Under the pieces are notes generated by a model. It ran no database searches. It was not told the origin of the DNA and saw only the letters and a program-made list of their open reading frames with translations. This document shows, piece by piece, positions 3,791-20,663 of a DNA stretch of 64,000 nt (positions within the stretch are counted from its first letter, which is position 1; each line of letters begins with the position of its first letter). The position numbers were made by a program, and so were the translations under genes. This DNA comes from Maridesulfovibrio sp. (GTDB lineage: Bacteria > Desulfobacterota > Desulfovibrionia > Desulfovibrionales > Desulfovibrionaceae), in assembly GCF_963677005.1 (NCBI RefSeq), contig NZ_OY781616.1, forward strand, positions 1,619,501 to 1,683,500. The letters are read 5' to 3'.

Positions 3791-3863
3791 CCGTCCCTGA
3801 CCTTGGCTGCTGCTCCGCGACGCAGCACGGCAGGGCCTTGCTCCCATTTTGCGCCTCCGGCTA
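3791..3863 (-). repeat. Block 2 of repeat following FGE gene, with hairpin
   Basis: Partner of block 1 at 2822-2896. The minus-strand hairpin uses CCCTG/CAGGG outside and TGCTGC/GCAGCA inside. It lies between the stop of the 959-aa gene and the start of the 266-aa FGE gene. Confidence 0.65.
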
Positions 3864-6740: not shown

Positions 6741-6747
6741 AACTCAA

Positions 6748-7668
6748 TTACAAGGCATCTTTTTTTAAAGTGAAGGATGAAATGGTCTCAAAGATGTCAT
6801 TTGCCTGATCCTTAGTCAGATTCTTAGACTTGTTACTTAAATCAAAGGCGCTGACAAAATCCAGATACTCTGACAAACCCGGCTTATATCTTCCCCGAAA
6901 TCCTTCTCTGTCCTTTAAAACAAACTTAGCAATATCATCCAAGGGAAGCGTATTGGAGAACTTATGAGCGATAGCCCTATCAACAAGCCATTTAACGGGA
7001 TTGCCTCCTTTTTTTTCATCAGGAATAGCCATTTGCAAGACAAGGCATCTCCGTAAAAAAGCCTTGGGCAACTCACGCTCTTCATTTGTCGTAATTATTA
7101 TCAATGGATTTGGTACACCGGCACTAATAGCTACCGGGTCATCAAGATATGGGACTTCAAACTTACCTTCAGCCAATGCCTCCAGCATGGAATTAGGTAC
7201 ATCTGAATCAGCCTTATCAATTTCATCAATAAGAACAACCCAGCCATTAGCATTTACAGGCTGTTCTTTATTGTAATGCAAGGATGGGCAACAGCTCCCT
7301 TTACATTTTTCATACATACTTGCAGCCTGCTCAGGCTGAAAGGCCCACCACAAAATCCCAGGGGACAGATAATTTTCCTTATCGAGATTTATGCATTTTT
7401 TATCATTGTCATCCAAAGAGCACTTCAACTGGGCGTCGCTTAGACGTTTTACCCCATCGAACTGCCACATAAGATCATTGGGCTCTGTTCGTGCAGTCAC
7501 AACCTCTGAAATAAGCGTCCGGCCATATTTTATTGCTGCAGCCCTTGCTAGGGAACTCTTTCCCACTCCCGGTTCACCTCGCACAAGCAACGGCCTACCT
7601 AACTCGATTGCCGCCTCAACAACAAATTTGTGGTTGGGGTCCCATTCGTAATTGTAATTGTCGCTCAT
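6748..7668 (-). CDS. MoxR-family AAA+ ATPase
   Basis: 306 aa from ATG 7668, preferred over the in-frame GTG at 7680 because GAGGGG lies 5 bases upstream of the ATG. Seen: Walker A GEPGVGKSS near residue 35, Walker B VVLIDEIDKAD, sensor-1 IIITTNEE followed by the arginine-finger-like AFLRRC. Family knowledge: MoxR ATPases act as chaperone-like remodellers that activate vWA-domain partners. Here it lies between the 491-aa gene and the vWA/FGE gene with gaps of 8 and 7 bp, which makes it the motor of a three-component module. An insertion with CSLDDNDKKC and CKGSCC cysteines (residues about 85-140) is unusual and could bind metal. Confidence 0.9.
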   Translation of the reverse strand: MSDNYNYEWDPNHKFVVEAAIELGRPLLVRGEPGVGKSSLARAAAIKYGRTLISEVVTARTEPNDLMWQFDGVKRLSDAQLKCSLDDNDKKCINLDKENYLSPGILWWAFQPEQAASMYEKCKGSCCPSLHYNKEQPVNANGWVVLIDEIDKADSDVPNSMLEALAEGKFEVPYLDDPVAISAGVPNPLIIITTNEERELPKAFLRRCLVLQMAIPDEKKGGNPVKWLVDRAIAHKFSNTLPLDDIAKFVLKDREGFRGRYKPGLSEYLDFVSAFDLSNKSKNLTKDQANDIFETISSFTLKKDAL

Positions 7669-7676
7669 ATTTCCCC

Positions 7677-9152
7677 TCACTGTATTTCACATGTTGTCTT
7701 GATCGACCCTAACGCCGCAGTAAAATAATCAATATTAAGCAAACGCAAAGCATCCTGGCTCTCACTTCTAAGTATAAATCTCACGGGTTGAAACCTACTA
7801 CTTAAATGTGACATAATTTCAATGCCATGCACTTCTTCTTCCAACATAATATAATAATATCTTGGCTGTTTACGCTTTGAGCTAGACTTCAGCTCTTGTT
7901 TTATTATTTCATCAGAAAATACGGTATCATTCGATCCAAACATTGAAACGCACAATTCCTTTGGGCAATGCTCGTTAAAATAATCATACGTTTCTCTTGG
8001 CACTGCGGAACTTATTCCTAAGCCAAGGCCTAGTTCATCCAAATATTCTCTGGACATATTTTCTAATCCCATCCCAACTTCTCCAATAGAAATAACCTTA
8101 GAACAAGGATTGGTCGGATCAGGGACACTCATGGTAACAGTGGAAATAATTATCTCAACCTCGTGCTTGGCAACCGTTCGGCACTTAAGCGCAAAGGATG
8201 CATTTACATTGTAAATATTTTGAGAAGACAATTTGAACTCTTCACATTCGGAAATAAATTTCAAAGCTAGACAAAATGCTATTTCCTTATAAAAATGAGC
8301 CTTATCACCCTCTTTAACAGCTCCTTCTGGGCTCATTTTGCACAAATCTAAGGCGTCATTAATATCATCTTTAAAAGACCAAAATCCAACCTCTTGCAAA
8401 TATTTTAGATATGCTTGTTCTGAAGGATTTCGCATTTCCGAACTTGGCACAACACAATCAGCCAATTTATTTTTGTAAAAATTATCATTAAGATATTTAT
8501 GATCTAGAAACATTATTTTACTTGCAGACACATTCAAAATAACTTCTATAAATCTCTCTCTAAAGTGACTGTCCATACATTCAGACACACTTGTAGCCGA
8601 ACAACTGGAACAGACAGTTTGCATCTCTGCAAATGATGTTGAAGTATTTACTTTCTCTTCAATTCGATCGCTTAATATAGATATTGACAGTAAATCCCTA
8701 TTCTTAGAACTACTGCAAACAAACACACTGAAATATCCACACAAGCACCTTATAAATTTTCCGGAGATATTATCATCAAGACCACTGTCTTCATAAAATT
8801 TTCTTTTAACGTCATTATAAAGTTCACTATGCTCAAAACTTTTTCCAGAAATATAAATTTTTACTAAATCTAAAATTTGTTCAGTATCAATTAAGTTCAG
8901 CCTCTCAAAGCACTTATCAGTATTAACTTCATCATCAAAAAATATTCTACGAACAAACTTTGATTTGAAAGATGAAAAATAGCCTTCCGAGGGCAAAATT
9001 AAAGATCTATATGTCTCTATATTTGCTTTGATAGAACTGTCATATTCTCCCTTTCGGCTACTAGCGATATTTTTCAAAAGGAATAAAACACTAACCATCG
9101 GCTTTGCATTCTTAATAGCGAGCTTACCAATTGCAATCCAGTCTAAGGTCAT
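7677..9152 (-). CDS. Unknown protein of the MoxR operon (491 aa)
   Basis: Start chosen at ATG 9152 (MTLDWIAIGKLAIKNAK), with GGCGGG 6 bases upstream; an earlier ATG at 9209 has no ribosome site. No domain is recognised. Seen: a hydrophobic stretch near residues 15-30 (AKPMVSVLFLLKNIA), a CSSCS cysteine cluster near residue 180, and a C-terminal half of mixed beta/alpha character. It is the first gene of the operon with MoxR and the vWA/FGE protein. By position it should be the third component or effector of the system. The DNA is AT-rich compared with the flanking chromosome. The 231 bp upstream, to the IS element, hold only the promoter region. Confidence 0.6.
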   Translation of the reverse strand: MTLDWIAIGKLAIKNAKPMVSVLFLLKNIASSRKGEYDSSIKANIETYRSLILPSEGYFSSFKSKFVRRIFFDDEVNTDKCFERLNLIDTEQILDLVKIYISGKSFEHSELYNDVKRKFYEDSGLDDNISGKFIRCLCGYFSVFVCSSSKNRDLLSISILSDRIEEKVNTSTSFAEMQTVCSSCSATSVSECMDSHFRERFIEVILNVSASKIMFLDHKYLNDNFYKNKLADCVVPSSEMRNPSEQAYLKYLQEVGFWSFKDDINDALDLCKMSPEGAVKEGDKAHFYKEIAFCLALKFISECEEFKLSSQNIYNVNASFALKCRTVAKHEVEIIISTVTMSVPDPTNPCSKVISIGEVGMGLENMSREYLDELGLGLGISSAVPRETYDYFNEHCPKELCVSMFGSNDTVFSDEIIKQELKSSSKRKQPRYYYIMLEEEVHGIEIMSHLSSRFQPVRFILRSESQDALRLLNIDYFTAALGSIKTTCEIQ

Positions 9153-9413
9153 CTCTTTCCCGCCAATATTATGATATCCTGAACGACTACTGAATTCCCA
9201 TCTAGTCATTATCTAAAAACTAACAAGAATAATTAACAAACAAATATAACAACTTCAACAGGATTACTATTGTCGTGTGACTGACCAGAGGGGCATAGTA
9301 AATTTACAACAAATTCATTCTAGAACAGATCATCGCCCATTCTTAAGAGAACGTCCCTTACGTCGAATTTCATTCCCCGCAACTGATCCTGCCACACTTT
9401 TCTGGACAGTCAG

Positions 9414-10295
9414 CTAAGCCACAAAGAAATTTTCCTGACAGTTGATTTCAAATTCAGCAGGTGACACCCATCCATTACTGGAGTGTCGTCTTCTGCGGTT
9501 ATAATAGGCCTCAATGTATTGAAAGAGAGCAATTTCAGCTTCCTGCCTGTGTGTAAATTTTCTATGATAGACCATTTGCGTTTTAAGGGTATGGAAAAAG
9601 GATTCGGCAACCGCATTATCCCAGCAATTCCCTTTGCGGCTCATGCTTTGGGTGCAACCATATTTTGCCAGCAATTTTCTAAATTCTCGACTGGCGTACT
9701 GCACCCCTCGATCGCTATGAATCATCAATCCTTTCGGTGGTCGACGCCTTGCAATTGCTTTTTTCAAAGCGCGGATTACAGAGCTTCTATCTAATGAGGC
9801 ACTCAAATCCCAGCCAACTATTATCCTAGAAAATAAATCTATAAAAACAGTGAGATAAAACCATTTCTTGCCAACTTTAATGTATGTAATATCCGTAACC
9901 CAAGCAGTATTCGGCTTGTATGCCGAGAACCGACGGTCCAGCAGGTTGGGGGCAACCGGCTCCTTGTGAGAGGAGTCTGTGGTGACCACGAACTTTCTTG
10001 TCGTTTTACACTGGAGTCCCATCGCCTTCATTTTTCTAGCAACTCGAACACGACTGACCGAGCAGAACCGTTCTTCATCATGCAGGTCGGCTGTGATCAT
10101 GGGACTTCCCGCCATTTGACCATGCTCATAATAAAGCTCCTGAATACGCTGGCACAATACTTTGTTTTCAATAGCTCTTTTTGATTCAGGTCTCGATAAC
10201 CACGCATAAAAACCGCTCCTGGAAACGTCCAGAGTTAGGCACATCTTCTTCACCGGAAAACTGGAGCGGTTCGCTTTTATAAATTGGAACGTCAT
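9414..10295 (-). CDS. IS3-family transposase OrfB, copy 1
   Basis: 293 aa with an HTH_21-like N-terminal region and an rve integrase core. The DDE triad is visible as D in WVTDITY, D in IHSDRGVQY and E in NAVAESFFH. It overlaps orfA by 4 bp (ATGA). An A7G slippery run within orfA could also give an OrfAB fusion by -1 frameshift, as in other IS3 elements. Compared with copy 2 it has Val instead of Ala in CSVSR(V/A)RVARK and Thr instead of Ala in HRKF(T/A)HRQ. Confidence 0.95.
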   Translation of the reverse strand: MTFQFIKANRSSFPVKKMCLTLDVSRSGFYAWLSRPESKRAIENKVLCQRIQELYYEHGQMAGSPMITADLHDEERFCSVSRVRVARKMKAMGLQCKTTRKFVVTTDSSHKEPVAPNLLDRRFSAYKPNTAWVTDITYIKVGKKWFYLTVFIDLFSRIIVGWDLSASLDRSSVIRALKKAIARRRPPKGLMIHSDRGVQYASREFRKLLAKYGCTQSMSRKGNCWDNAVAESFFHTLKTQMVYHRKFTHRQEAEIALFQYIEAYYNRRRRHSSNGWVSPAEFEINCQENFFVA

Positions 10296-10597
10296 TTCGG
10301 TGCGCTGCTGAAGATGGCCAATGCTTTTTTTAGGATATCACGCTCAGTTTCCGCATCGCGTAATTTTTTCTCCAGCTCTTTGATCCTTCGTTTCTCATCA
10401 GTCAAAATTCCATTTTCCTGTCCGGTAAACGCATTCCCACCGTTACGGAAATATTCACGACGCCACCGATAAAGAATATTGGGGGAGATCCCAAGACTGT
10501 CTGCAACTTCGGTATGAGTTCGGGATGGATCTTCACTTAAAAGGACTGCATTTCGTTTAAATTCCGGATCGTAATTCCGACGTTTGGATTTGGTCAT
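10292..10597 (-). CDS. IS3-family transposase OrfA, copy 1
   Basis: 101 aa: helix-turn-helix (RNYDPEFKRNAVLL through LGISPNILYRWRREY) followed by a leucine-zipper-like coiled coil ending ILKKALAIFSSAPK. Identical in protein sequence to copy 2. It binds the terminal repeats and guides OrfB. Confidence 0.95.
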   Translation of the reverse strand: MTKSKRRNYDPEFKRNAVLLSEDPSRTHTEVADSLGISPNILYRWRREYFRNGGNAFTGQENGILTDEKRRIKELEKKLRDAETERDILKKALAIFSSAPK

Positions 10598-10628
10598 TCG
10601 CTTCTCCTGTGAAAGTCAGGATAGCGGC

Positions 10629-11330
10629 TTAAGTTCGTGTCCACAATCTTGTAGCAGGATCAAATTGCCGGGCGTCATCAATAAGGACATTATCTTCTAG
10701 TACATGTTCACCATATTTACTAAGCCCAGACACTTGTCCTGTCTTAATGGTTAGCTCTTCTGGCTTATATGATTGGTCAATGCCGAATGCATTTAATGCT
10801 GTTTTAATCGCATTTTCCTGTGCCCATTCTTTATTTGGTGTAGGCCGCAGTTTAGGAATTTGGCTCACAGTATTGTTTAATGCATTAATGTTTTCTGGGA
10901 ATTCAGCCAAAATTTCTATTATGTTAGAACTTAGTTTTGGTGAAAGCATGGATGTAGCATTTTGGACTGGAATCTTATCCATGAAAGCCGAGTAGAATCT
11001 TGAAATTGTTATGAGGTCGGATAGCTCCTCAAAGGAATTAGGAACGATTCTTTGCAAACCAGTCAAGGTTAGCCGTGACTCCAACGTTGAAACGGCTCTT
11101 TTCCTTGCTACAACCCCGATGAATAGTTTTACTTCATGATCATCAATGAATTCTACTAAGCAAAAAGTAGGTGTCCTGAAATTTTTAAAACTGTCATGAC
11201 GTCTAGTGAAAGTTATATGCTCTAGCCCTCGTCTAGAGTATAGCAAAGAGTGAGAATCTGCTTCATCAAATGAAATGAGGATGAGAGGTTTTTTTTCAAC
11301 CCAATTTGCTATGTCATTTATAACGTCCAT
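10629..11330 (-). pseudogene. Last gene of the HsdM-DAC operon, 3' end lost to IS insertion
   Basis: Native sequence is 10663-11330 (about 223 codons); the final residues DPATRLWTRT come from the IS end, exactly as in the truncated relaxase. A ribosome site GGAG 6 bases before ATG 11330 and the 29-bp gap to the gene upstream support an operon position. The visible part has LILISFDEADSHSLLY at the N-terminus and a late HVLEDNVLIDDARQF stretch. From memory, similar stretches precede nuclease-like domains in other proteins, which would make the lost part catalytic, but this is weak. The rest of the gene is not found elsewhere in the window. Confidence 0.6.
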
Positions 11331-11359
11331 TAGTGCTCCAGATATATTGAGGAATGAGC

Positions 11360-12367
11360 TTATTCTTCGGCATTCACGATAAACTCGACTATTGAAACTC
11401 CACCACTGTCTTCAGGATAATCCGGCTCTTCTGGCCAGCCCCCATCAAAATTGGGAGGCCCATCATTACTGTTGTGGTCTGAGAAATTATGACTGCTTTG
11501 CATGTCGTAGCACTCTTTTAATAAAGAGTGCTTTGAGCTTGCTCCGGCAAGAAATACTCCGCTTTTTTGAAAGGTCATCGCATCAAAGGATGCTGAAGCT
11601 CGATCCGTAAAAACACTTACACGGTCTTTTGTTGCTGAAATTAAGTCGTTTACGACTTGATCCCACCCACCTTTTCCTAGTCGTGACGTATCGTAAGGCT
11701 TACCAGCATTACCTTGAATGAAATTGAATAATTCATGAATGAAGCATTGGTGACGACTTAATTTGGGAGTGGTCGGCTGAGCTGTTAGCAGTCCACAGTT
11801 GTCACATCTGATCTGATGGCGTAGTTCAACTTTTTCGAGTTCATACTGTTCTGCACACCCCGCGCCGTTGATGAATAAGTATTTTGCAGCGTCGTACATG
11901 TCTGGTTCGCAAATATATCTTTGTTCACCCATCAGGTACCCCGACCTGCGTCCATATATGAATGGTGGCCAGTTAGAATATAGGTGCCACTGGTTTTTAT
12001 TGTCAGCCTTGCTGTATTTATTTCCTTTCTTGGCTTGTAACAGTAGTGCATTTTGCTTTGTGATTCTGTCGTTTGAAACCATCGTTTGTAAAAGCAACAG
12101 ATCACCAATCTCAACTGATCCAGGAATTTTGTCTGGAAAAGTTTTACAAATAACTAAAGGGAGAGCATGAACAAAAGCTCCATTTACCGAAATTCTTATA
12201 TTATTACTCTGAGCAATTCGGTTAATATAGCGCGGCAAAAGACATACTAGATTTGCAACTAGCTGAGGTTCATTTTGAGTCATATCACTAAAGGCAGAGT
12301 TTACTGCATAAGTAATAGCTCTTAATATCCTATTAGAATCATCCTTTCTAAATAGAAGATTTATCAT
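11360..12367 (-). CDS. Unknown protein of the HsdM-DAC operon (335 aa), possible zinc site
   Basis: Start at ATG 12367, 4 bp after the HsdM stop, with GGAG upstream; the frame extends further up but inside hsdM. A likely metal site is seen in the middle: IRCDNCGLL followed by HQCFIHE. The C-terminus is acidic and rich in Pro, Asp and Gly (GPPNFDGGWPEEPDYPED). No nuclease or specificity-subunit motif is recognised. It lies between the methyltransferase and the truncated last gene, so it probably works with the methyltransferases. It could supply the target-recognition or effector role that HsdS/HsdR would normally provide, but nothing in the sequence proves it. Confidence 0.65.
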   Translation of the reverse strand: MINLLFRKDDSNRILRAITYAVNSAFSDMTQNEPQLVANLVCLLPRYINRIAQSNNIRISVNGAFVHALPLVICKTFPDKIPGSVEIGDLLLLQTMVSNDRITKQNALLLQAKKGNKYSKADNKNQWHLYSNWPPFIYGRRSGYLMGEQRYICEPDMYDAAKYLFINGAGCAEQYELEKVELRHQIRCDNCGLLTAQPTTPKLSRHQCFIHELFNFIQGNAGKPYDTSRLGKGGWDQVVNDLISATKDRVSVFTDRASASFDAMTFQKSGVFLAGASSKHSLLKECYDMQSSHNFSDHNSNDGPPNFDGGWPEEPDYPEDSGGVSIVEFIVNAEE

Positions 12368-12371
12368 TACT

Positions 12372-13862
12372 TTAGAGCTCCTTCTCCAACATATCCAAAA
12401 GCTCACCCATAGATTCACGGAGAGCAACAGAATTCTCCCGCCAATCCGCAACAGCCTTTTTCAAATCAACCTGCTCAGTCTTACAGTTCCCGTTACCATT
12501 CCCATTCTCCGTACGAACATAAAGCGGAATGCTGAGATTGCTTCCCTGCTTTAGGATGTCTTCATTACCAATGATTTTTGAGAAGCCATCTTCATCACTA
12601 AAGCTATTGTATGCGTTAACAATCCGTTTAATGTGATCGTCAGTCAAAAAGCTTTGAGCCCGTTCTCGTGTAACTTCGTTAACGGCATTGATGAATTGAA
12701 CTTTGCCTTTCCGCTCAGTAGGCTTGTTCATCGCACAGATGATGACACAGGCCTCCATAGGTGAGTTGTAAAAGAGGTTAGGTCCAAGACCGAGGACGCA
12801 TTCAACTACGTCATGCTCAATCAATTTTTCACGCATGGAGCTTTCTTCATTACGGAAAAGAACCCCATGAGGGAAAAGAATCGCGCAGCGTCCGTTTTCA
12901 GTGTTCATGCTTTGGATGATGTGTTGCCAGAATGCGTAGTCCGCACGCCCCTGCGGGGGAGTTCCATAAATATTCCGCCCCCAGGCATCAGAAGACCATG
13001 CTTTACGATCCCACTGCTTAATTGAGTAAGGCGGGTTGGCAAGAACGACGTTGAACTTCATAAGCTCATCGCCTTCAGTGAAGGCTGGACTGGACAGAGT
13101 GTCACCTCGGACGACCTTGAAATCTTCAATGCCATGCAGAAAGATGTTCATCTTGCCGATGGCGGAGGTCAGCAGGTTACGTTCCTGCCCGAACAGGCGA
13201 AGGTTGCGCCATTCCTTATTCTGCCGCTTGAGATGAGCAACGGCAGAGAGCAGCATACCCGCAGATCCGCATGTTGGATCATAGATGGATTCACCAGGTT
13301 GGGGCTTCAGTATTTCCGTCATCAAGTGGACAACTGTGCGGTTGGTGTAAAATTCAGCAGCAGTGTGCCCTGAGTCATCAGCAAATTTTTTGATCAGGAA
13401 TTCATAACCAATGCCGAGTTCGTCTTCTGGACAGTTAGCAATAGAAAGAGTCTGAGAGCTAAAGTTTTCAATCAGTTCACGTAGCATGTGGTCCGGCAAA
13501 CGGTCTTTGTTGGTCCACTGAGCATCGCCAAAGACACCAAATAGGGTGTCCGGATTTGCTTTCTCAATAGCACGCAGAGAATCCTGAATAGCCTTACCGA
13601 CGTCTTTGACCTTGGCGCGGGTAGCAGTCCAGTGCGCATCAGCAGGAATTTGAAAGCGGTGCTGTTCCGGCAGCTCTGCATATTCTTTATCGCCGCCGGA
13701 TTCCTCAAGAGCTTCAGCTAGTTCTTCATCATAAACGTCGCAAAGACGCTTATAAAAGAGCATAGGAAAAATGAACTGCTTGTAGTCCCCGGCATCAATG
13801 TATCCGCGTAAAAGGGTGGCTGCACCCCAGAGATATGATTCTAGTTCTGTTTGGGAGATCAT
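12372..13862 (-). CDS. hsdM: Type I-like N6-adenine DNA methyltransferase (HsdM), copy 1
   Basis: 496 aa, the usual HsdM length. An N-terminal HsdM helical domain (YLWGAATLLRGYIDAGDYKQFIFPMLFYKRLCDVYDEE) precedes a class I methyltransferase core with SAM motif YDPTCGSAGML near residue 192 and catalytic NPPY in VVLANPPYSI near residue 278. Uses SAM to methylate adenine N6 in DNA, normally within an M2S complex. There is no hsdS or hsdR nearby. It begins 3 bp after the DAC-like gene. It is clearly paralogous to the second HsdM at 15119-16642 but well diverged, suggesting that two different M subunits act together or at different sites. Confidence 0.93.
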   Translation of the reverse strand: MISQTELESYLWGAATLLRGYIDAGDYKQFIFPMLFYKRLCDVYDEELAEALEESGGDKEYAELPEQHRFQIPADAHWTATRAKVKDVGKAIQDSLRAIEKANPDTLFGVFGDAQWTNKDRLPDHMLRELIENFSSQTLSIANCPEDELGIGYEFLIKKFADDSGHTAAEFYTNRTVVHLMTEILKPQPGESIYDPTCGSAGMLLSAVAHLKRQNKEWRNLRLFGQERNLLTSAIGKMNIFLHGIEDFKVVRGDTLSSPAFTEGDELMKFNVVLANPPYSIKQWDRKAWSSDAWGRNIYGTPPQGRADYAFWQHIIQSMNTENGRCAILFPHGVLFRNEESSMREKLIEHDVVECVLGLGPNLFYNSPMEACVIICAMNKPTERKGKVQFINAVNEVTRERAQSFLTDDHIKRIVNAYNSFSDEDGFSKIIGNEDILKQGSNLSIPLYVRTENGNGNGNCKTEQVDLKKAVADWRENSVALRESMGELLDMLEKEL

Positions 13863-13865
13863 AAG

Positions 13866-15131
13866 TTATGAGAGCCTTACTATTTCTTCTTTGTCACGAT
13901 TGATAGCTTTGATATACCCGTCATTAGAAATTTTTATGCCGAGGCCGTATTTTGCAACAGCTACGGTTGCAGCTTGCCTCCCTCCACTTGAGCTGCCTCC
14001 TTCAACAGAGAGAATAGCACCTGTGGCAAGAAAATTACCTTCATGATCAAGTACAGTCGCACCATCTATAGAAACGAGTTCAAGCCTGAGGAGTCTATCA
14101 AGGTTTTGAAATTTAGTGTTTTTGATTAAATAGTTTAAAGCTTTGGATTTTGATGTTGTTTGTTTTTCTAAAAGGTCCTTGTCGTTTATAAGTCCTTTGC
14201 TGATAGCGGTGGGCTTACTCCTTGCGTTCAATACTCCAATACACCCTCCTGTCTTTGCAAAGGAAACATCAAGAGCGGTTAGATATATTTCTTTCCGCAA
14301 TGTTTCAGACGATTTCCTTCCCATTGCTTTGTTTGTAAGCCTTTTGATAACTGATTCATGAGCAAAGTAACGCCAGTATCCTCTTCGTTTGGCAAAGCAT
14401 AAATTCCCATCTTTAAATATGAGTATTTCGCCCCCACGGTTCAGCGAAATAATAATGTTTTCAGTGTCTTTGGTCCATGCTGCTAACTTGGAGAATCTAA
14501 TTGGGGAATACAACTCACTCACATCATAATCGTCATCAAAAATTTTGTGACTAACTAATAGCCCTTCATCATCGAAGATTAACGCAGTATCATGCCCGTT
14601 ACTCATTACTTTAAAAAAATCGTGGTCTTCTAAGTCTTCAAAATGGAGACTTCCTCCTTTTCTACTTCCTGAAATGCCAAGAGAAAAAACAATTCTGTCG
14701 CCTTCATATGTTTGCTGGGACCATTCAGACAAAGTAGAAATTATCTTTAACACGAGCTGTGGATTTGATGGATTAATGCTTTTCGAAACGACTTCCGACA
14801 TAAATGATTGAGCTGTATCTTTGGCAAAAGGTTTTCTCCAATCTTTTAGTACTCTTTCAATGTGGTCTAGAAAGCAGTCCATGATTTTTAATTCATGAGG
14901 AGTAAAAGGTTGTGTTCGCTCAATCTGGCATCTGACTTCTCTGTGATTTTTTAGAGTTAGTCTGGCTTGGCCACTGTTTCTTACTTGGATAGCCAATTTG
15001 CGCATTTTTCGTCGAGGAGGGGAAACCCACGTAGGGTCACTAAAATTTGTTCCTGGAAATAATGGGAATAATAGTTGTTCAATAACTTGTCCGAACGATT
15101 TACGCCTTATTTTTTGTTCTAGGAGTGCCAT
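13866..15131 (-). CDS. DisA_N/DAC-like nucleotide-sensor protein between two HsdM genes
   Basis: 421 aa. The C-terminus resembles the diadenylate cyclase (DAC) fold: SIDGATVLDHEGNFLATGAIL (DGA motif, D near residue 356), then SSSGGRQAAT where active enzymes have GTRHRAA, then YGLGIKISNDGYIKAI where they have SEExGxIS. The RHR triad is broken (only one Arg, near 385), so cyclase activity is doubtful and a sensor or pseudo-enzyme of the DACNV kind is more likely. The middle part (HDTALIFDDEGLLVSHKIF and IIISLNRGGEILIFKDG) looks like an accessory beta domain. It overlaps the upstream HsdM by 13 bp, with GAGGG before its ATG. Inference: it senses a nucleotide made or depleted on phage infection, or links it to the methyltransferases. 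Confidence 0.62.
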   Translation of the reverse strand: MALLEQKIRRKSFGQVIEQLLFPLFPGTNFSDPTWVSPPRRKMRKLAIQVRNSGQARLTLKNHREVRCQIERTQPFTPHELKIMDCFLDHIERVLKDWRKPFAKDTAQSFMSEVVSKSINPSNPQLVLKIISTLSEWSQQTYEGDRIVFSLGISGSRKGGSLHFEDLEDHDFFKVMSNGHDTALIFDDEGLLVSHKIFDDDYDVSELYSPIRFSKLAAWTKDTENIIISLNRGGEILIFKDGNLCFAKRRGYWRYFAHESVIKRLTNKAMGRKSSETLRKEIYLTALDVSFAKTGGCIGVLNARSKPTAISKGLINDKDLLEKQTTSKSKALNYLIKNTKFQNLDRLLRLELVSIDGATVLDHEGNFLATGAILSVEGGSSSGGRQAATVAVAKYGLGIKISNDGYIKAINRDKEEIVRLS

Positions 15132-16642
15132 AGTCCCTCTTTTTTAAGCAATGCAGAAAGCTTATCTTCAGCCGTATAAGCCGCATCCAGAGATTTTTTC
15201 AAATTTTCAACTGCTTCCTCAACGGTGATGGATTCTTCCTCAATAATAGGCTCTACATAACGAGGAATATTAAGGTTGAAATCGTTCTCCTTAATTTCAT
15301 CTAACCCAACAACCCTGCATGCACCTTCGACATCTTGGTAATCTTCATACCAATTGTGGATGGCATCTACATGGGCAGGAAGCAGTTCGTTTTGTGCGCG
15401 TCCTTTCTTAAATTCATTCGACGCATCGATGAAAAGTATTTTGCCTTTTTTAGCTTCAGGCTTTCTTTTACGAAAAATTAAAATACAAGCAGCCAGTCCT
15501 GTTCCATAGAAAAGATTCTGTCCAAGCCCGATAACAGCTTCAAGTATGTCCATTTCCAGCAAGGCCTTACGGATTTTACCTTCTTTTGCCATGCGAAACA
15601 AAACACCATGAGGCAGTACAACCGCCATACGTCCGGTCTTGGGGGCCATGGATTTAATCATATGCTGCACCCAGGCGAAGTCTCCGGAATTGGCCGGAGG
15701 AATACCAGCAAAGCAACGGCCATATGGATCATTGCCCCAGATATCGTCTCCCCATTTTTTTAGCGAGAATGGAGGATTGGCTATGACACAATCAAATTCA
15801 GATATGCTGTCGCCAGAATAAAAAGCAGGCTGCCGGAGAGTGTCTCCACGTTCAATGTGAAAATCTTCGGCTCCGTGTAGAAAAAGGTTCATCCGGGCAA
15901 TGGATGAGGTGGTGAGGTTCTTTTCCTGACCATAGAGCTTGCCGAGCATGAGATTTTCATCACCACCATGCTCTTTTACATAATGGATAGCCTCAAGCAG
16001 CATGCCCCCTGTTCCGCATGCAGGGTCATAAATTGTTTCACCCGTTTGCGGAGCAAGTATTTTTACCAGAAGTGATACAACGGAACGCGGGGTATAGAAT
16101 TCACCGGCTTTTTTGTTGGTCAGGTCGGCAAATTTCTTAATCAGATATTCATATGAATGCCCAAGAATATCGGCCCTGCAAGCTTTGTTGCCAAGATCTA
16201 ACGAAGAAAAATGTTCAATCAGATCTTTGAGGAGCGAGTCAGAAAGGCGGTCCTTGTTTGTCCATTGGGCATCACCGAAAATTCCATGAAGGGTCTCAGG
16301 GTTTGCTTGCTCAATGCACCGCATTGCCTTTTGGATGGCATAGCCAACATTATCGACTCGTGCACGGACTTCTTTCCAGTGGCATTCTGGAGGGATCTGA
16401 AAGCGGTGGTTTTCAGGAAACTGTGCGTATTCGAAATCACCGTCTGATTCTTTTAAAGCAAGGGCCAGTTCTTCATCATAAACATCTGACACGCGTTTAA
16501 AGAAGAGCAGTGGAAAAATGTAAGTCTTGAAATCAGCAGCATCAACAGGACCGCGCAGGATGTTGGCAGCTTCCCAGAGATGATTGGAAAGGGAGCCGGT
16601 TTCGGTGTCGGTTGAGATATTATTTCCGTTATTCTTATTCAC
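15119..16642 (-). CDS. hsdM: Type I-like N6-adenine DNA methyltransferase (HsdM), copy 2
   Basis: 507 aa from a GTG at 16642, the only reasonable start; the ribosome site is weak. HsdM N-domain (NHLWEAANILRGPVDAADFKTYIFPLLFFKRVSDVYDEE), SAM motif YDPACGTGGML near residue 208, catalytic CVIANPPFSL. First gene of a five-gene minus-strand operon. Compared with copy 1 the catalytic motif is NPPF instead of NPPY; both forms are active in known families. The 425-bp divergent region upstream carries phased CAAGA-type repeats that may control it. Confidence 0.93.
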   Translation of the reverse strand: MNKNNGNNISTDTETGSLSNHLWEAANILRGPVDAADFKTYIFPLLFFKRVSDVYDEELALALKESDGDFEYAQFPENHRFQIPPECHWKEVRARVDNVGYAIQKAMRCIEQANPETLHGIFGDAQWTNKDRLSDSLLKDLIEHFSSLDLGNKACRADILGHSYEYLIKKFADLTNKKAGEFYTPRSVVSLLVKILAPQTGETIYDPACGTGGMLLEAIHYVKEHGGDENLMLGKLYGQEKNLTTSSIARMNLFLHGAEDFHIERGDTLRQPAFYSGDSISEFDCVIANPPFSLKKWGDDIWGNDPYGRCFAGIPPANSGDFAWVQHMIKSMAPKTGRMAVVLPHGVLFRMAKEGKIRKALLEMDILEAVIGLGQNLFYGTGLAACILIFRKRKPEAKKGKILFIDASNEFKKGRAQNELLPAHVDAIHNWYEDYQDVEGACRVVGLDEIKENDFNLNIPRYVEPIIEEESITVEEAVENLKKSLDAAYTAEDKLSALLKKEGLWHS

Positions 16643-16897: not shown

Positions 16898-17028
16898 GCA
16901 GGACAGGTAAGGTAGGACCACCTTTTCAGGTGGTCTCCCTTACGTCCTGCTCAGCCTTGGGGCTGAGGTTGACTTATTCGCCTTCGGCTCAACGCAAGTT
17001 GCTTGCGAAATTCAGGACTCCTGAATTT
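16898..17028. other. Cluster of hairpins upstream of mobilization genes (possible oriT)
   Basis: (a) 16898-16950: nested stems GCAGGAC/GTCCTGC, GTAAGG/CCTTAC and GACCACC/GGTGGTC, nearly perfect over 53 nt. (b) 16951-16966: TCAGCC/GGCTGA. (c) 16993-17007: CGCAAG/CTTGCG. (d) 17008-17028: AAATTCAGGA/TCCTGAATTT with one central base. It lies directly before the Rha, MobC and relaxase genes. Dense inverted repeats are usual at transfer origins, but a replication origin or structured RNA is possible. Confidence 0.6.
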
Positions 17029-17067
17029 TGCGCTGATATAAACTGCAAACTATGTGGAGTATGTGAG

Positions 17068-17883
17068 ATGAGCGAAAAAGACAGTAAAAACATATTGTTA
17101 TCGACTGTAATTGAACTGATTATGGAGAATGATCAGCCGATGGCTTCTTCATTGCTGGTGGCTGAACTCTTTGAAAAACGTCATGATAACGTCCTTCAAT
17201 CAATAAATGATTTGGATGTCCCAGATGATTTTAGACGCCTTAATTTTCAGGAGTCCTCTTATATAAATAAGCAGAACAAAGAGCAGCCTTCATTCAACAT
17301 GACCCGCGACGGCTTTTCCCTTCTCGCCATGGGATTTACCGGCAAGAAGGCAATGGAGTGGAAGATCAAGTTTCTTGAGGCCTTTAACGCCATGGAGGCC
17401 CAACTGACAATTCCTCCAGTGGAGGGAAAGATTCAGTATAGGAAGGCAACTCCGGAAGCTGTGAAGTCCTTTGAGGGTGTCGCGCGTTACTGGTGTTTTC
17501 TGGAAGGGCTCAACTGGGAACAGGGCAAAAGACAAATAGAAGGGGCAATCCGGGTTCCTGATCTTTATGAAATGGATGCGTTGGCCATGAGCAGTGCATG
17601 GACTTATCTCAGGATGTGCATGCGCATTGTTCCGCCTAAAATGCGCGGTAAGGATATATGCTCGAAAGACGAATTGTCTCCGGTCAACGGGTTGCTTGAT
17701 TACTGGGCTTATTGCGGCCAGTCCACACGTGACGAGCTGCTTGCAAATTTATGTGGAGACATGTGCATTGACTCATTGGAGTGCCTGCCTAAATCGTATG
17801 TACCTCATGCTGTAAGTCTTATCTGGGAAGGCATTAACCATGAATCAGGTAAAACGAATGCCCTCAAAGAAGCAAGTTATTAA
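17068..17883 (+). CDS. Rha-family phage regulatory-type protein
   Basis: 271 aa from ATG 17068, with GGAG 9 bases upstream; the frame is open further up but only through the hairpin cluster. The N-terminal 110 residues match the Rha domain: SSLLVAELFEKRHDNVLQSI, then NFQESSYINKQNKEQPSFNMTRDGF and GFTGKKAMEWKIKFLEAFNAME. Family knowledge: Rha proteins (phi-80/P22 type) are phage regulators that block growth in some hosts. The C-terminal half is not recognised. It overlaps mobC by 44 bp and so belongs to the mobilization operon. Confidence 0.85.
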   Translation: MSEKDSKNILLSTVIELIMENDQPMASSLLVAELFEKRHDNVLQSINDLDVPDDFRRLNFQESSYINKQNKEQPSFNMTRDGFSLLAMGFTGKKAMEWKIKFLEAFNAMEAQLTIPPVEGKIQYRKATPEAVKSFEGVARYWCFLEGLNWEQGKRQIEGAIRVPDLYEMDALAMSSAWTYLRMCMRIVPPKMRGKDICSKDELSPVNGLLDYWAYCGQSTRDELLANLCGDMCIDSLECLPKSYVPHAVSLIWEGINHESGKTNALKEASY

Positions 17884-18175
17884 AGCCTACGTTTCTAAAG
17901 AGGAATATAAGCAGATAAGCGCGACCGCGCAGCAATGCAGCTTGTCTCTTTCCGCTTTTGCCAAAGCTGTTTGTCTCGGCCATGAAATCAAAAGCCGCAC
18001 TGACCATCAGGCGCGGCGTGAGCTTTTGAAAACAAATGCTGATCTTGGTCGTCTGGGAGGTTTGCTCAAGATGTGGATTCTGGATGATGACCAGTACCGT
18101 ACGGATGTTGAAAGGCTTCTTGAGGACATCCGTCAGACTCAAAAACAGATAGTTGATAAGGTCCGTTCCATATGA
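17840..18175 (+). CDS. mobC: MobC-like mobilization accessory protein
   Basis: 111 aa. The N-terminal part (KKQVIKAYVSKEEYKQISATAQQCSLSLSAFAKAVCLG) looks like a ribbon-helix-helix DNA-binding domain, followed by helices with LKTNADLGRLGGLLKMWI, the pattern of MobC proteins. Binds oriT and helps the relaxase open the DNA. GGGAAGG lies about 8 bases before the ATG. Its stop overlaps the relaxase start (ATGA). The last base of the operator region or oriT would be expected upstream of the Rha gene. Confidence 0.85.
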   Translation: MNQVKRMPSKKQVIKAYVSKEEYKQISATAQQCSLSLSAFAKAVCLGHEIKSRTDHQARRELLKTNADLGRLGGLLKMWILDDDQYRTDVERLLEDIRQTQKQIVDKVRSI

Positions 18176-19311
18176 TCAGCCGCCGAATTGCTTGCAAGCC
18201 TCAGAACGATAACTATCGGAGGCTGGCCGATTACATTGCCGATGCCAAGAACAAAGGTGAGAAGACCTTGATGTCCTGGTGTGCCGGTTGCTGGGCAGGC
18301 GATGACTACGAGCTGGCGATTCAGGAAGTTCTGGATACGCAGGAATTGAATCAGCGCACCGGCAAGGAGAAGACCTATCACCTGATAGTTTCCTTCAGGC
18401 CGGAAGACGAGGCCGTCCTCTCTCCTGACGATTTCAAAGAAATCGAGCAGGAATTTTCCAAAGCCCTGGGCTTTGAGGATCATCAGCGGCATTGCGGAGT
18501 TCATAAGAATACCAACAACATCCACATGCATATCGCTTACAACATGGTTCATCCGGAAAGATTGACTCGGTACGAGCCGTACCGTGATTTCTACAAGCGT
18601 GACCGGCTACACCGCGAACTGGAGCTGAAGTTTGGCCTGAAGTTCGACAACGGCAGGCAGAAGGATCAAGAACCCAAGCGCAGCAATGACCGTGCTGCCA
18701 CCTATGAGGCCCATTCCGGCCAGCAGTCCTTCGATTCGTATGTGAAGGAACGCAAGGATTATATTCTGAAATCACTGGATAAGGCCCAAAACTGGCAGGA
18801 GTTTCACGAAGCCATGGTGCAGATCGGGATTGAGGTCCGGTTGCGCGGGAGTGGCTGCAGCATCAAAGACCGACATTCCAGGACGGCCATCAAGGCCAGC
18901 AGGCTTGACCGGAATTTTACGAAATCCAAGCTTGAGTCCAAACTCGGATGTTTTCAGCCTCCTTTTGAGACGAGGACAGAGGAGAGGGAAAGATATGTTG
19001 CCCGGCCCCTGCATAAACATCAGGGAGAGTTGTATGCCGAGTACCGTGCGGCCATCTCCGGCAGGAAGAAGGCCTACGAGGACCTGCGTGAAGAACAGGA
19101 TAGTCGCCGTGGCCAGGTCTATTCTCATTGGGACGGCAAGATAAAGGGACTTAGAAGTGACCGCAAGCTACGGCCAAAGGATCGCAGCCGGTTGATTGCT
19201 CTGGCGTCCGGCAGAAAGACCGAGGCTATGGAAGCCCTTAAAAAGGAAATGTCCGGAAAACGTGCGGAACTGCGTGTTGATCCTGCTACAAGATTGTGGA
19301 CACGAACTTAA
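18172..19311 (+). CDS. MOBP-type relaxase, C-terminus truncated by IS insertion
   Basis: Native part 18172-19277 (about 368 codons); the last residues DPATRLWTRT are encoded by the IS end. Relaxase/VirD2-like domain: a Tyr-containing N-terminal helix (NYRRLADYIADA), then the metal-binding motif HKNTNNIHMHIAYN near residue 110 (HxxxxNxHxH). The nicking domain is complete, while the C-terminal tail, which usually carries primase, helicase-like or secretion-signal functions, is lost. Overlaps mobC by 4 bp. The truncation probably abolishes mobilization in its present state. Confidence 0.88.
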   Translation: MISRRIACKPQNDNYRRLADYIADAKNKGEKTLMSWCAGCWAGDDYELAIQEVLDTQELNQRTGKEKTYHLIVSFRPEDEAVLSPDDFKEIEQEFSKALGFEDHQRHCGVHKNTNNIHMHIAYNMVHPERLTRYEPYRDFYKRDRLHRELELKFGLKFDNGRQKDQEPKRSNDRAATYEAHSGQQSFDSYVKERKDYILKSLDKAQNWQEFHEAMVQIGIEVRLRGSGCSIKDRHSRTAIKASRLDRNFTKSKLESKLGCFQPPFETRTEERERYVARPLHKHQGELYAEYRAAISGRKKAYEDLREEQDSRRGQVYSHWDGKIKGLRSDRKLRPKDRSRLIALASGRKTEAMEALKKEMSGKRAELRVDPATRLWTRT

Positions 19312-19342
19312 GCCGCTATCCTGACTTTCACAGGAGAAGCGA

Positions 19343-19648
19343 ATGACCAAATCCAAACGTCGGAATTACGATCCGGAATTTAAACGAAATGCAGTCCTTT
19401 TAAGTGAAGATCCATCCCGAACTCATACCGAAGTTGCAGACAGTCTTGGGATCTCCCCCAATATTCTTTATCGGTGGCGTCGTGAATATTTCCGTAACGG
19501 TGGGAATGCGTTTACCGGACAGGAAAATGGAATTTTGACTGATGAGAAACGAAGGATCAAAGAGCTGGAGAAAAAATTACGCGATGCGGAAACTGAGCGT
19601 GATATCCTAAAAAAAGCATTGGCCATCTTCAGCAGCGCACCGAAATGA
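19343..19648 (+). CDS. IS3-family transposase OrfA, copy 2
   Basis: 101 aa, protein identical to copy 1: HTH domain plus coiled coil. AGGAG 6-7 bases before the ATG. Contains the A7G run near its 3' end where frameshifting can occur. Confidence 0.95.
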   Translation: MTKSKRRNYDPEFKRNAVLLSEDPSRTHTEVADSLGISPNILYRWRREYFRNGGNAFTGQENGILTDEKRRIKELEKKLRDAETERDILKKALAIFSSAPK

Positions 19649-20526
19649 CGTTCCAATTTATAAAAGCGAACCGCTCCAGTTTTCCGGTGAAGAAGATGTG
19701 CCTAACTCTGGACGTTTCCAGGAGCGGTTTTTATGCGTGGTTATCGAGACCTGAATCAAAAAGAGCTATTGAAAACAAAGTATTGTGCCAGCGTATTCAG
19801 GAGCTTTATTATGAGCATGGTCAAATGGCGGGAAGTCCCATGATCACAGCCGACCTGCATGATGAAGAACGGTTCTGCTCGGTCAGTCGTGCTCGAGTTG
19901 CTAGAAAAATGAAGGCGATGGGACTCCAGTGTAAAACGACAAGAAAGTTCGTGGTCACCACAGACTCCTCTCACAAGGAGCCGGTTGCCCCCAACCTGCT
20001 GGACCGTCGGTTCTCGGCATACAAGCCGAATACTGCTTGGGTTACGGATATTACATACATTAAAGTTGGCAAGAAATGGTTTTATCTCACTGTTTTTATA
20101 GATTTATTTTCTAGGATAATAGTTGGCTGGGATTTGAGTGCCTCATTAGATAGAAGCTCTGTAATCCGCGCTTTGAAAAAAGCAATTGCAAGGCGTCGAC
20201 CACCGAAAGGATTGATGATTCATAGCGATCGAGGGGTGCAGTACGCCAGTCGAGAATTTAGAAAATTGCTGGCAAAATATGGTTGCACCCAAAGCATGAG
20301 CCGCAAAGGGAATTGCTGGGATAATGCGGTTGCCGAATCCTTTTTCCATACCCTTAAAACGCAAATGGTCTATCATAGAAAATTTGCCCACAGGCAGGAA
20401 GCTGAAATTGCTCTCTTTCAATACATTGAGGCCTATTATAACCGCAGAAGACGACACTCCAGTAATGGATGGGTGTCACCTGCTGAATTTGAAATCAACT
20501 GTCAGGAAAATTTCTTTGTGGCTTAG
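19645..20526 (+). CDS. IS3-family transposase OrfB, copy 2
   Basis: 293 aa, DDE integrase core (WVTDITY, IHSDRGVQY, NAVAESFFH), overlapping orfA by ATGA. Two residues differ from copy 1. Full length, so this copy could still supply transposase. Confidence 0.95.
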   Translation: MTFQFIKANRSSFPVKKMCLTLDVSRSGFYAWLSRPESKRAIENKVLCQRIQELYYEHGQMAGSPMITADLHDEERFCSVSRARVARKMKAMGLQCKTTRKFVVTTDSSHKEPVAPNLLDRRFSAYKPNTAWVTDITYIKVGKKWFYLTVFIDLFSRIIVGWDLSASLDRSSVIRALKKAIARRRPPKGLMIHSDRGVQYASREFRKLLAKYGCTQSMSRKGNCWDNAVAESFFHTLKTQMVYHRKFAHRQEAEIALFQYIEAYYNRRRRHSSNGWVSPAEFEINCQENFFVA

Positions 20527-20663
20527 CTGACTGTCCAGAAAAGTGTGGCAGGATCACTAATAGACTTTACCGGCGGTAAGGACAGAGTAATATCCAATGA
20601 ATCCGTTGAATTCAAAGCGGCTAGGGACGTTAAATCACACATGGCTGATTCTTTTTCTACGGG

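What the first reader, a model, noticed from the sequence alone, without database searches (positions are those of the whole stretch)
10629..16642. HsdM-DAC-HsdM operon without HsdR or HsdS
Two diverged type I methyltransferase subunits flank a protein with a DisA/DAC-like C-terminus whose RHR triad is broken. Two unrecognised proteins follow, the last cut by an IS. No specificity or restriction subunit is present. A nucleotide-sensing pseudo-cyclase coupled to two adenine methyltransferases would be a new type of modification-linked immunity.
Basis: partly seen in the sequence, partly recalled or inferred. Interest (0 to 1): 0.82.

Follow-up and report, generated by a model that had tools for sequence, protein, structure and literature searches.

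The report
Truncated two-HsdM operon, DAC-like cargo
This is the likely remnant of a mobile type I restriction-modification operon: it stops at an insertion sequence, has two different DNA-methyltransferase genes and, between them, a gene predicted to have the fold of c-di-AMP-making enzymes but lacking part of their active-site motif; a related bacterium has the same three genes followed by the usual specificity and restriction genes, so the middle gene is likely an add-on to a known kind of defence and not a new stand-alone system.

Summary
The genes are real: HsdM-A, a DAC-like protein, HsdM-B, ORF4, and ORF5 cut by an IS. The DAC fold is supported: model pLDDT 95, and the 50 PDB matches shown are DisA/CdaA-type cyclases. 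RHR is lost in a conserved way: D356, R385, K400 and S402 are kept in 119-120 of 120 homologues, and the His position is never His. But 'no HsdS or HsdR' is not a property of the system. In a Desulfolutivibrio relative the same three genes run on into hsdS and hsdR. In a genome of the window's own genus, HsdM-A (90%) and HsdM-B (89%) are followed by hsdS-hsdR, with another gene in the DAC position. Of 17 two-HsdM operons read, the slot between the two hsdM genes is empty in 11 and holds four kinds of gene in 6. So the window is a likely IS-truncated copy, and the DAC-like gene is cargo, probably a nucleotide-binding guard or signal protein; its function is untested. A DAC in phage defence is in print (DS-2, PMC13092281); I found none in a type I operon. 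New variant of a known kind.

The parts
15119..16642 (-). HsdM-A, 507 aa, first gene of the operon; motifs DPACGTGGM and NPPF
   Evidence: HsdM_N 86.8 bits, N6_Mtase 352.6 bits; 81% identical in G095, 90% in G267; motifs
13866..15131 (-). DAC-like protein, 421 aa; overlaps hsdM-A by 13 nt; DGA kept, RHR replaced by R385-Q386-A387
   Evidence: PF02457 14.9 bits, below cut-off; model pLDDT 95.4; fold matches; motif counts
12372..13862 (-). HsdM-B, 496 aa; motifs DPTCGSAGM and NPPY
   Evidence: HsdM_N 78.8 bits, N6_Mtase 290.5 bits; 83% identical in G095, 89% in G267
11360..12367 (-). ORF4, 335 aa, possible PD-(D/E)xK-type nuclease; lies where relatives have slot-2 cargo or hsdS
   Evidence: 68 homologues; invariant E33, E86, D89, Q111 and nearly invariant K113; model pLDDT 81; no significant fold match
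10629..11330 (-). ORF5, 233 aa as read, of which about the last 11 residues are IS sequence; truncated
   Evidence: IS boundary at 10663; one other homologue, 33% identical; no Pfam match
9384..10663 (-). IS copy that ends the operon (two ORFs, 101 and 293 aa)
   Evidence: 99.8% identical to the copy at 19277-20556; third copy at C1:2574787-2576066
17840..18175 (+). small gene before the relaxase (111 aa), in the mobilisation region
   Evidence: G267 DNA similarity over window 17867-19082
18172..19311 (+). MobA-like relaxase, truncated by the second IS copy (379 aa as read; 558 aa in G267)
   Evidence: Relaxase 112 bits; 72% identical to the G267 relaxase
19277..20556 (+). second IS copy, inverted relative to the first

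Best explanation
The segment is a type I restriction-modification operon of a class with two different HsdM subunits that stops at an insertion sequence, where hsdS and hsdR were likely lost, and the DAC-like gene between the two hsdM genes is likely an accessory (cargo) gene whose product is predicted to bind a nucleotide and would act beside the restriction enzyme. Shown by the calls: gene order, IS boundaries, complete operons in relatives, a variable slot between the two hsdM genes, and an altered but strictly conserved DAC motif. Predicted by a model: the DAC fold. Inferred: in an intact operon HsdM-A and HsdM-B share one HsdS and methylate the two half-sites, HsdR restricts, and the DAC-like protein is a nucleotide-gated guard that answers to failure of the R-M enzyme or to infection, in the way PrrC does in EcoprrI. 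Without a matching HsdS the window's two HsdM should not modify DNA, so this copy is likely a remnant whose cargo genes may or may not still work alone.
For: G095: HsdM-A (81%), DAC-like (54%), HsdM-B (83%), HsdS (Methylase_S 111.6 bits), HsdR (HSDR_N, SWI2_SNF2) in one run. G267, same genus: HsdM-A 90%, 344-aa gene, HsdM-B 89%, 506-aa gene, HsdS, HsdR, with a relaxase 72% identical in the same divergent place. HsdS follows in 14 of 17 two-HsdM operons read; the three without are the window and two contig ends. No partner HsdS/HsdR in the genome (with G095 and G267 ringing in 91), none at the third IS copy. Slot cargo varies: DAC-like 2, PDDEXK_3 2, GmrSD_N 1, unknown 1 of 17; empty 11. DAC fold; motif. 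Type I M or S alone does not bind DNA (PMC3874165, passage). PrrC precedent (PMC3874165 and PMC12707154, passages).
Against: Only 2 of 17 operons have the DAC-like gene in the slot, and most near-full-length relatives of it are not in an hsd operon (2 of 14 places inside one, 1 near one). The DAC-like protein is far less conserved (54%) than its neighbours (81-83%) between the window and G095, so two separate acquisitions are possible. Loss of hsdS/hsdR through the IS is inferred; no target-site duplication was seen. No guard activity, nucleotide or effector is shown; RHR, needed for ATP binding in one DisA (PMC3328451, passages), is absent.
Confidence: 0.55

Rival explanations
1. The DAC-like protein is a passenger: a mobile defence-island gene that inserted in a tolerated junction and works (or not) independently of the R-M enzyme.
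For: Relatives sit on plasmids without hsd genes, at the end of an MZA locus, beside a CBASS and in chromosomal places; the slot takes unrelated genes; G267 has no DAC-like match at all although its HsdM are 89-90% identical.
Against: In both operons that have it the gene overlaps the hsdM-A end (13 nt in the window; 13 nt or, from the annotated start of P0004, 4 nt in G095), and the identified cargo at these junctions is mostly nuclease- or defence-like, as expected of helpers.
Confidence: 0.3
2. The DAC-like protein is an active nucleotidyltransferase with a changed active site that makes a signal (not necessarily c-di-AMP) for a co-encoded effector such as ORF4 or a slot-2 gene, as a DAC is needed in the CBASS-linked DS-2 system.
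For: Asp, first Arg, Ser and a new invariant Lys are kept in 119-120 of 120. In DS-2 mutating two predicted catalytic residues of the DAC abolished defence (PMC13092281, passages). A family member lies beside a CBASS.
Against: His and the second Arg of RHR are gone, and RHR to AAA abolished ATP binding and activity in one DisA. Match to the DS-2 DAC model is 10.3 bits against a cut-off of 630. G095 has the DAC-like gene with no slot-2 gene.
Confidence: 0.12
3. One reading: pseudo-cyclase plus two methyltransferases form a complete, HsdS- and HsdR-free immunity.
For: The window as it stands has no hsdS or hsdR.
Against: Complete hsd operons with the same genes in relatives; the operon ends at an IS that cuts ORF5; M subunits do not bind DNA alone (PMC3874165, passage).
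Confidence: 0.03

Closest known systems
Type I restriction-modification (HsdM-HsdS-HsdR)
   Same: Both HsdM have HsdM_N and N6_Mtase; relatives' operons carry HsdS and HsdR
   Different: Two different HsdM in one operon (usual model: two identical M per S, PMC3874165 passage); in the window HsdS and HsdR are absent
EcoprrI with embedded prrC
   Same: Accessory gene embedded in a type I operon; a nucleotide (dTTP) matters for PrrC (passages)
   Different: The DAC-like protein has a DAC fold, not PrrC's anticodon-nuclease architecture (recalled); no toxic activity shown
Diadenylate cyclases DisA / CdaA (PF02457)
   Same: Predicted fold, DGA motif, first Arg of RHR, Ser of the SE segment
   Different: No His or second Arg of RHR; an invariant Lys400; below Pfam's cut-off; N-terminal part not matched to these
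DS-2 (phospholipase, cGAS, DAC; PMC13092281)
   Same: DAC-type protein in phage defence; one relative of our family lies beside a CBASS on an A. vitis plasmid
   Different: 10.3 bits against a cut-off of 630; no CBASS here; a closer relative of the DS-2 DAC (78.5 bits, also below the cut-off) is elsewhere in the genome (L002)

Membership tests
Type I restriction-modification | HsdM with HsdM_N and N6_Mtase, motifs I and IV intact | tested here: met
   for both HsdM
Type I restriction-modification | HsdS and HsdR encoded with HsdM | tested here: not met
   absent in the window and no partner in the genome; present in relatives of the same operon: HsdS in 14 of 17, HsdR in 12 of 17. So: a remnant or relative of type I, not a working member by itself
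Diadenylate cyclase (DAC) | DAC fold | tested here: met
Diadenylate cyclase (DAC) | DGA and RHR motifs | tested here: not met
   DGA met, RHR not met: R385-Q386-A387; no His at the His position in 120 sequences
Diadenylate cyclase (DAC) | Pfam DAC gathering score 27 bits | tested here: not met
   14.9 bits
Diadenylate cyclase (DAC) | c-di-AMP synthesis | not testable with these tools
   needs an enzyme assay
DS-2 DAC (NF053872) | NCBIfam equivalog cut-off 630 bits; CBASS genes beside it | tested here: not met
   10.3 bits; no CBASS genes among the operon's neighbours that were scanned
MADS (methylation-associated defence system) | MAD2 methyltransferase model NF047738, cut-off 720 bits | tested here: not met
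   77.3 and 53.7 bits for HsdM-A and HsdM-B
PrrC-like guard of a type I enzyme | gene embedded in a type I operon | tested here: met
   complete operon in G095
PrrC-like guard of a type I enzyme | latent activity released when the R-M enzyme is blocked | not testable with these tools
   needs infection assays
PD-(D/E)xK nuclease superfamily (ORF4) | core fold and catalytic D...(D/E/Q)xK residues | tested here: inconclusive

The most novel reading that the evidence does not exclude
Two-HsdM type I enzymes are a distinct class with a heterodimeric methyltransferase core and plug-in cargo slots, and one plug-in is a new DAC-fold nucleotide sensor (R-x-A in place of RHR, invariant Lys) that couples the state of the restriction enzyme to a nucleotide signal of infection.
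Probability: 0.3. Interest if true: 0.75.

Novelty: new variant of a known kind. Interest (0 to 1): 0.5.

Why it matters
If the reading holds, type I operons with two different HsdM are a platform into which accessory defence genes are swapped at fixed junctions, and a DAC-derived nucleotide-binding protein is one of them. That would tie nucleotide signalling, which the DS-2 work links to defence through CBASS, to a classical restriction enzyme, and the complete Desulfolutivibrio operon makes it directly testable. It also corrects a tempting over-reading: the missing hsdS and hsdR are most simply the work of an IS.

Tried and rejected
Rejected: 'no HsdS/HsdR by design'. Rejected as unlikely: that the genome's other HsdS serves these HsdM; that locus has its own HsdM, 31% / 25% identical to ours, and its own HsdR. 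Rejected: that the lost tail sits at the third IS copy; tblastn of the G267 relaxase, 506-aa gene, HsdS and HsdR finds nothing in the 19.5 kb around it. Rejected: membership in DS-2 or MADS.

Led nowhere: PDB by sequence with the DAC-like and ORF4 profiles (best E 0.074, a gyrase; none for ORF4); viral contigs for both families; plasmids for ORF4; phages for the DAC-like protein gave one unannotated 6.6-kb record; the genome-contig scan gave 4 distant DAC-like loci; ORF5 has one homologue besides itself. An ORF4 relative in G096 shows no hsd gene in its 20 kb. Residues about 99-264 of the DAC-like protein are spanned by few fold rows, which shows nothing. dN/dS of the DAC-like gene against G095 could not be had (dS saturated). 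HsdM-A and HsdM-B are not strict clades on the tree (2 changes each; two single-HsdM rows fall with B; several long branches). In one search my ORF picker hid hsdM-B of L036 behind a longer opposite-strand ORF; searches corrected it. One search's outer IS ends were replaced. Of the 34 genomes, 10 hold a pair that I read and G020 shows HsdM-A alone at a contig end; two more loci (G205, G294) were read and have one HsdM; a 3.2-kb contig of G043 was fetched but not analysed; the other 20 were not read.

Not seen: the contigs of P0002, P0003 and P0005-P0019, the closest homologues besides G095's, as no tool gave their context. Galperin 2023 on DAC architectures is not held; I know it only as cited in PMC13092281.
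Full report
WHAT IS THERE. On the - strand, from 16642 down to 10629, lie five tightly packed genes: hsdM-A (507 aa), a DAC-like gene (421 aa), hsdM-B (496 aa), ORF4 (335 aa) and ORF5. The DAC-like start overlaps the end of hsdM-A by 13 nt, hsdM-B starts 3 nt after the DAC-like stop, and ORF4 starts 4 nt after the hsdM-B stop. Both HsdM have HsdM_N and N6_Mtase far over the Pfam cut-offs. ORF5 has no family and runs into an IS. Copies of this IS lie at 9384-10663 and, inverted, at 19277-20556, 99.8% identical over 1280 bases; a third whole copy is elsewhere in the chromosome. The right copy truncates a MobA-like relaxase (379 aa as read against 558 aa in G267). In the flanks printed I saw no target-site duplication, as expected if deletions started at the IS, but that proves nothing.

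THE OPERON IN RELATIVES. In G095 (a contig of 4155851 bases, the length of the contig of P0004, which its source names Desulfolutivibrio sulfoxidireducens) the order is HsdM-A (81%), DAC-like (54%), HsdM-B (83%), HsdS, HsdR. There the DAC-like gene overlaps hsdM-A by 13 nt, or by 4 nt from the start used in P0004. In G267, of the window's genus, the order is HsdM-A (90%), a 344-aa protein, HsdM-B (89%), a 506-aa protein, HsdS, HsdR, with a relaxase 72% identical to the window's in the same divergent place. DNA similarity between the window and G267 covers hsdM-A, hsdM-B and the mobilisation genes, with the DAC-like gene and everything below hsdM-B left out. In G024, of another family, HsdM-A and HsdM-B (80% each) abut; a YhcG-type PD-(D/E)xK gene and a Ymh gene lie between hsdM-B and hsdS, and a distant DAC-like gene (32%) lies about 4 kb beyond hsdR on the other strand.

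HOW GENERAL. A class search with HsdM-A (347 genomes) gave 34 genomes at E <= 1e-100, 10 with an adjacent A/B pair that I read (the window, G267, G103, G224, G110, G095, G024, G102, G040, G149). A phylum search with HsdM-B (395 genomes drawn evenly) gave 11 genomes at E <= 1e-140, 5 with a new pair (G362, G554, G542, G623, G649). Plasmids of Streptomyces hirsutus and Exiguobacterium aurantiacum add two; the other 18 plasmid records were not read. Of these 17 pairs the slot between A and B is empty in 11 (no ORF kept; up to about 200 bp) and occupied in 6: DAC-like 2, PDDEXK_3 2, GmrSD_N 1, unknown 344-aa 1. The place between B and S also varies: ORF4+ORF5, a 506-aa protein, YhcG+Ymh, Bro-N, DUF4062/HATPase_c_4/Fic-like_C; in G554 HsdM-B is fused to Methylase_S. 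HsdS follows in 14 of 17, in G542 in two pieces; the three without are the window and two contig ends (G149, G623). HsdR is seen in 12 of 17, in G554 as a 289-aa piece; G542 and G649 show none in the stretch held. HsdM-A has DPACGTGGM and NPPF in 18 of 18 (G020 included), HsdM-B NPPY in 17 of 17 and DPTCG(S/T)(A/G)GM in 16 of 17. On a tree of 40 rows the A and B labels need 2 changes each (shuffled means 13.5 and 13.1): old paralogues, though not strict clades.

WHERE ELSE THE DAC-LIKE FAMILY SITS. The class search with the family (348 genomes) gave 19 genomes with a match and 14 places near full length. Two are inside an hsd operon, one (G024) near one, and one (G167) lies downstream of an MZA-type locus with MzaC, MzaE and a methyltransferase. 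Six in genus g18 lie beside a 747-761-aa gene, SpoIIE/HATPase in the one scanned. Neighbours scanned at G093, G098 (second copy), G315 and G316 gave little: a HerA-like ATPase at G315, weak CARF hits at G093. On an A. vitis plasmid a 37.5% relative is next to CBASS genes. A phylum search gave 37 of 395 genomes with any match, most of them weak. So the family is wider than R-M and only partly a defence-island gene.

GENOME CHECK. The genome has one HsdS and one HSDR_N match, at C1:910-912 kb in another type I locus with its own HsdM; G095 and G267 rang as controls. The HsdR of G267 finds nothing (no control in that call). So no evident partner for HsdM-A/B exists here. Since neither S nor M binds DNA alone (PMC3874165, passage), this copy should not modify DNA.

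HOW IT LIKELY WORKS. In an intact operon HsdM-A and HsdM-B likely share one HsdS, and HsdR restricts. The DAC-like protein, likely made together with HsdM-A, is likely a nucleotide-binding helper. The nearest precedent is PrrC, embedded in EcoprrI, sequestered in the enzyme complex and released on phage T4 infection, with dTTP important for active PrrC (PMC3874165, PMC12707154, passages). I commit to a nucleotide-gated guard or signal protein; the links to R-M inhibition and to any effector are untested. ORF4 may be a nuclease: E33, E86, D89 and Q111 are invariant and K113 nearly so in 29 aligned members, and they fall where PD-(D/E)xK residues would fall (recalled pattern), but no fold match is significant; among six weak VIA rows the top is not a nuclease.

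IN PRINT. A DAC has been shown to be needed for phage defence in DS-2, together with CBASS genes (PMC13092281, passages). The two hsdM genes of Mycoplasma agalactiae belong to a locus whose HsdM are described as highly conserved copies (PMC9465063, passages), a different case.

Noticed in passing
window 3861-9209 (-): Three adjacent genes: a MoxR-like AAA ATPase (310 aa), a 510-aa protein with no Pfam match over its cut-off, and a 959-aa protein ending in an FGE-sulfatase domain; looks like a separate conflict-type operon.
   Followed up: no
window 16930-17883 (+): A phage Rha-type regulator gene lies between hsdM-A and the mobilisation genes; in G267 no such gene is in that place.
   Followed up: no
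L002 496-1926 (own genome, C1:1214322): A 476-aa DAC protein (PF02457 56 bits) is a relative of the DS-2 DAC model (78.5 bits, below its cut-off of 630); its RHR segment reads RFN.
   Followed up: partly
L067 7592-11719 (G691): A distant DAC-like protein (455 aa) follows a MoxR-like ATPase (32% to the window's) and a 187-aa gene, and precedes a 390-aa gene that was not scanned.
   Followed up: no
L157 8199-10889 (G554): HsdM-B fused to a Methylase_S domain in one 896-aa protein, beside a separate HsdM-A: a two-HsdM operon with an M-S fusion.
   Followed up: no
L105 742-4221 (G267): Beyond the relaxase of the related element lies a 1159-aa SIR2_2 / STAND-type NTPase protein, a further defence-like cargo.
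   Followed up: no
L065, L066, L068, L069, L070: A distant 424-428-aa branch of the DAC-like family stands alone among what look like ordinary chromosomal genes in several genera of the phylum; it may show the older function.
   Followed up: no
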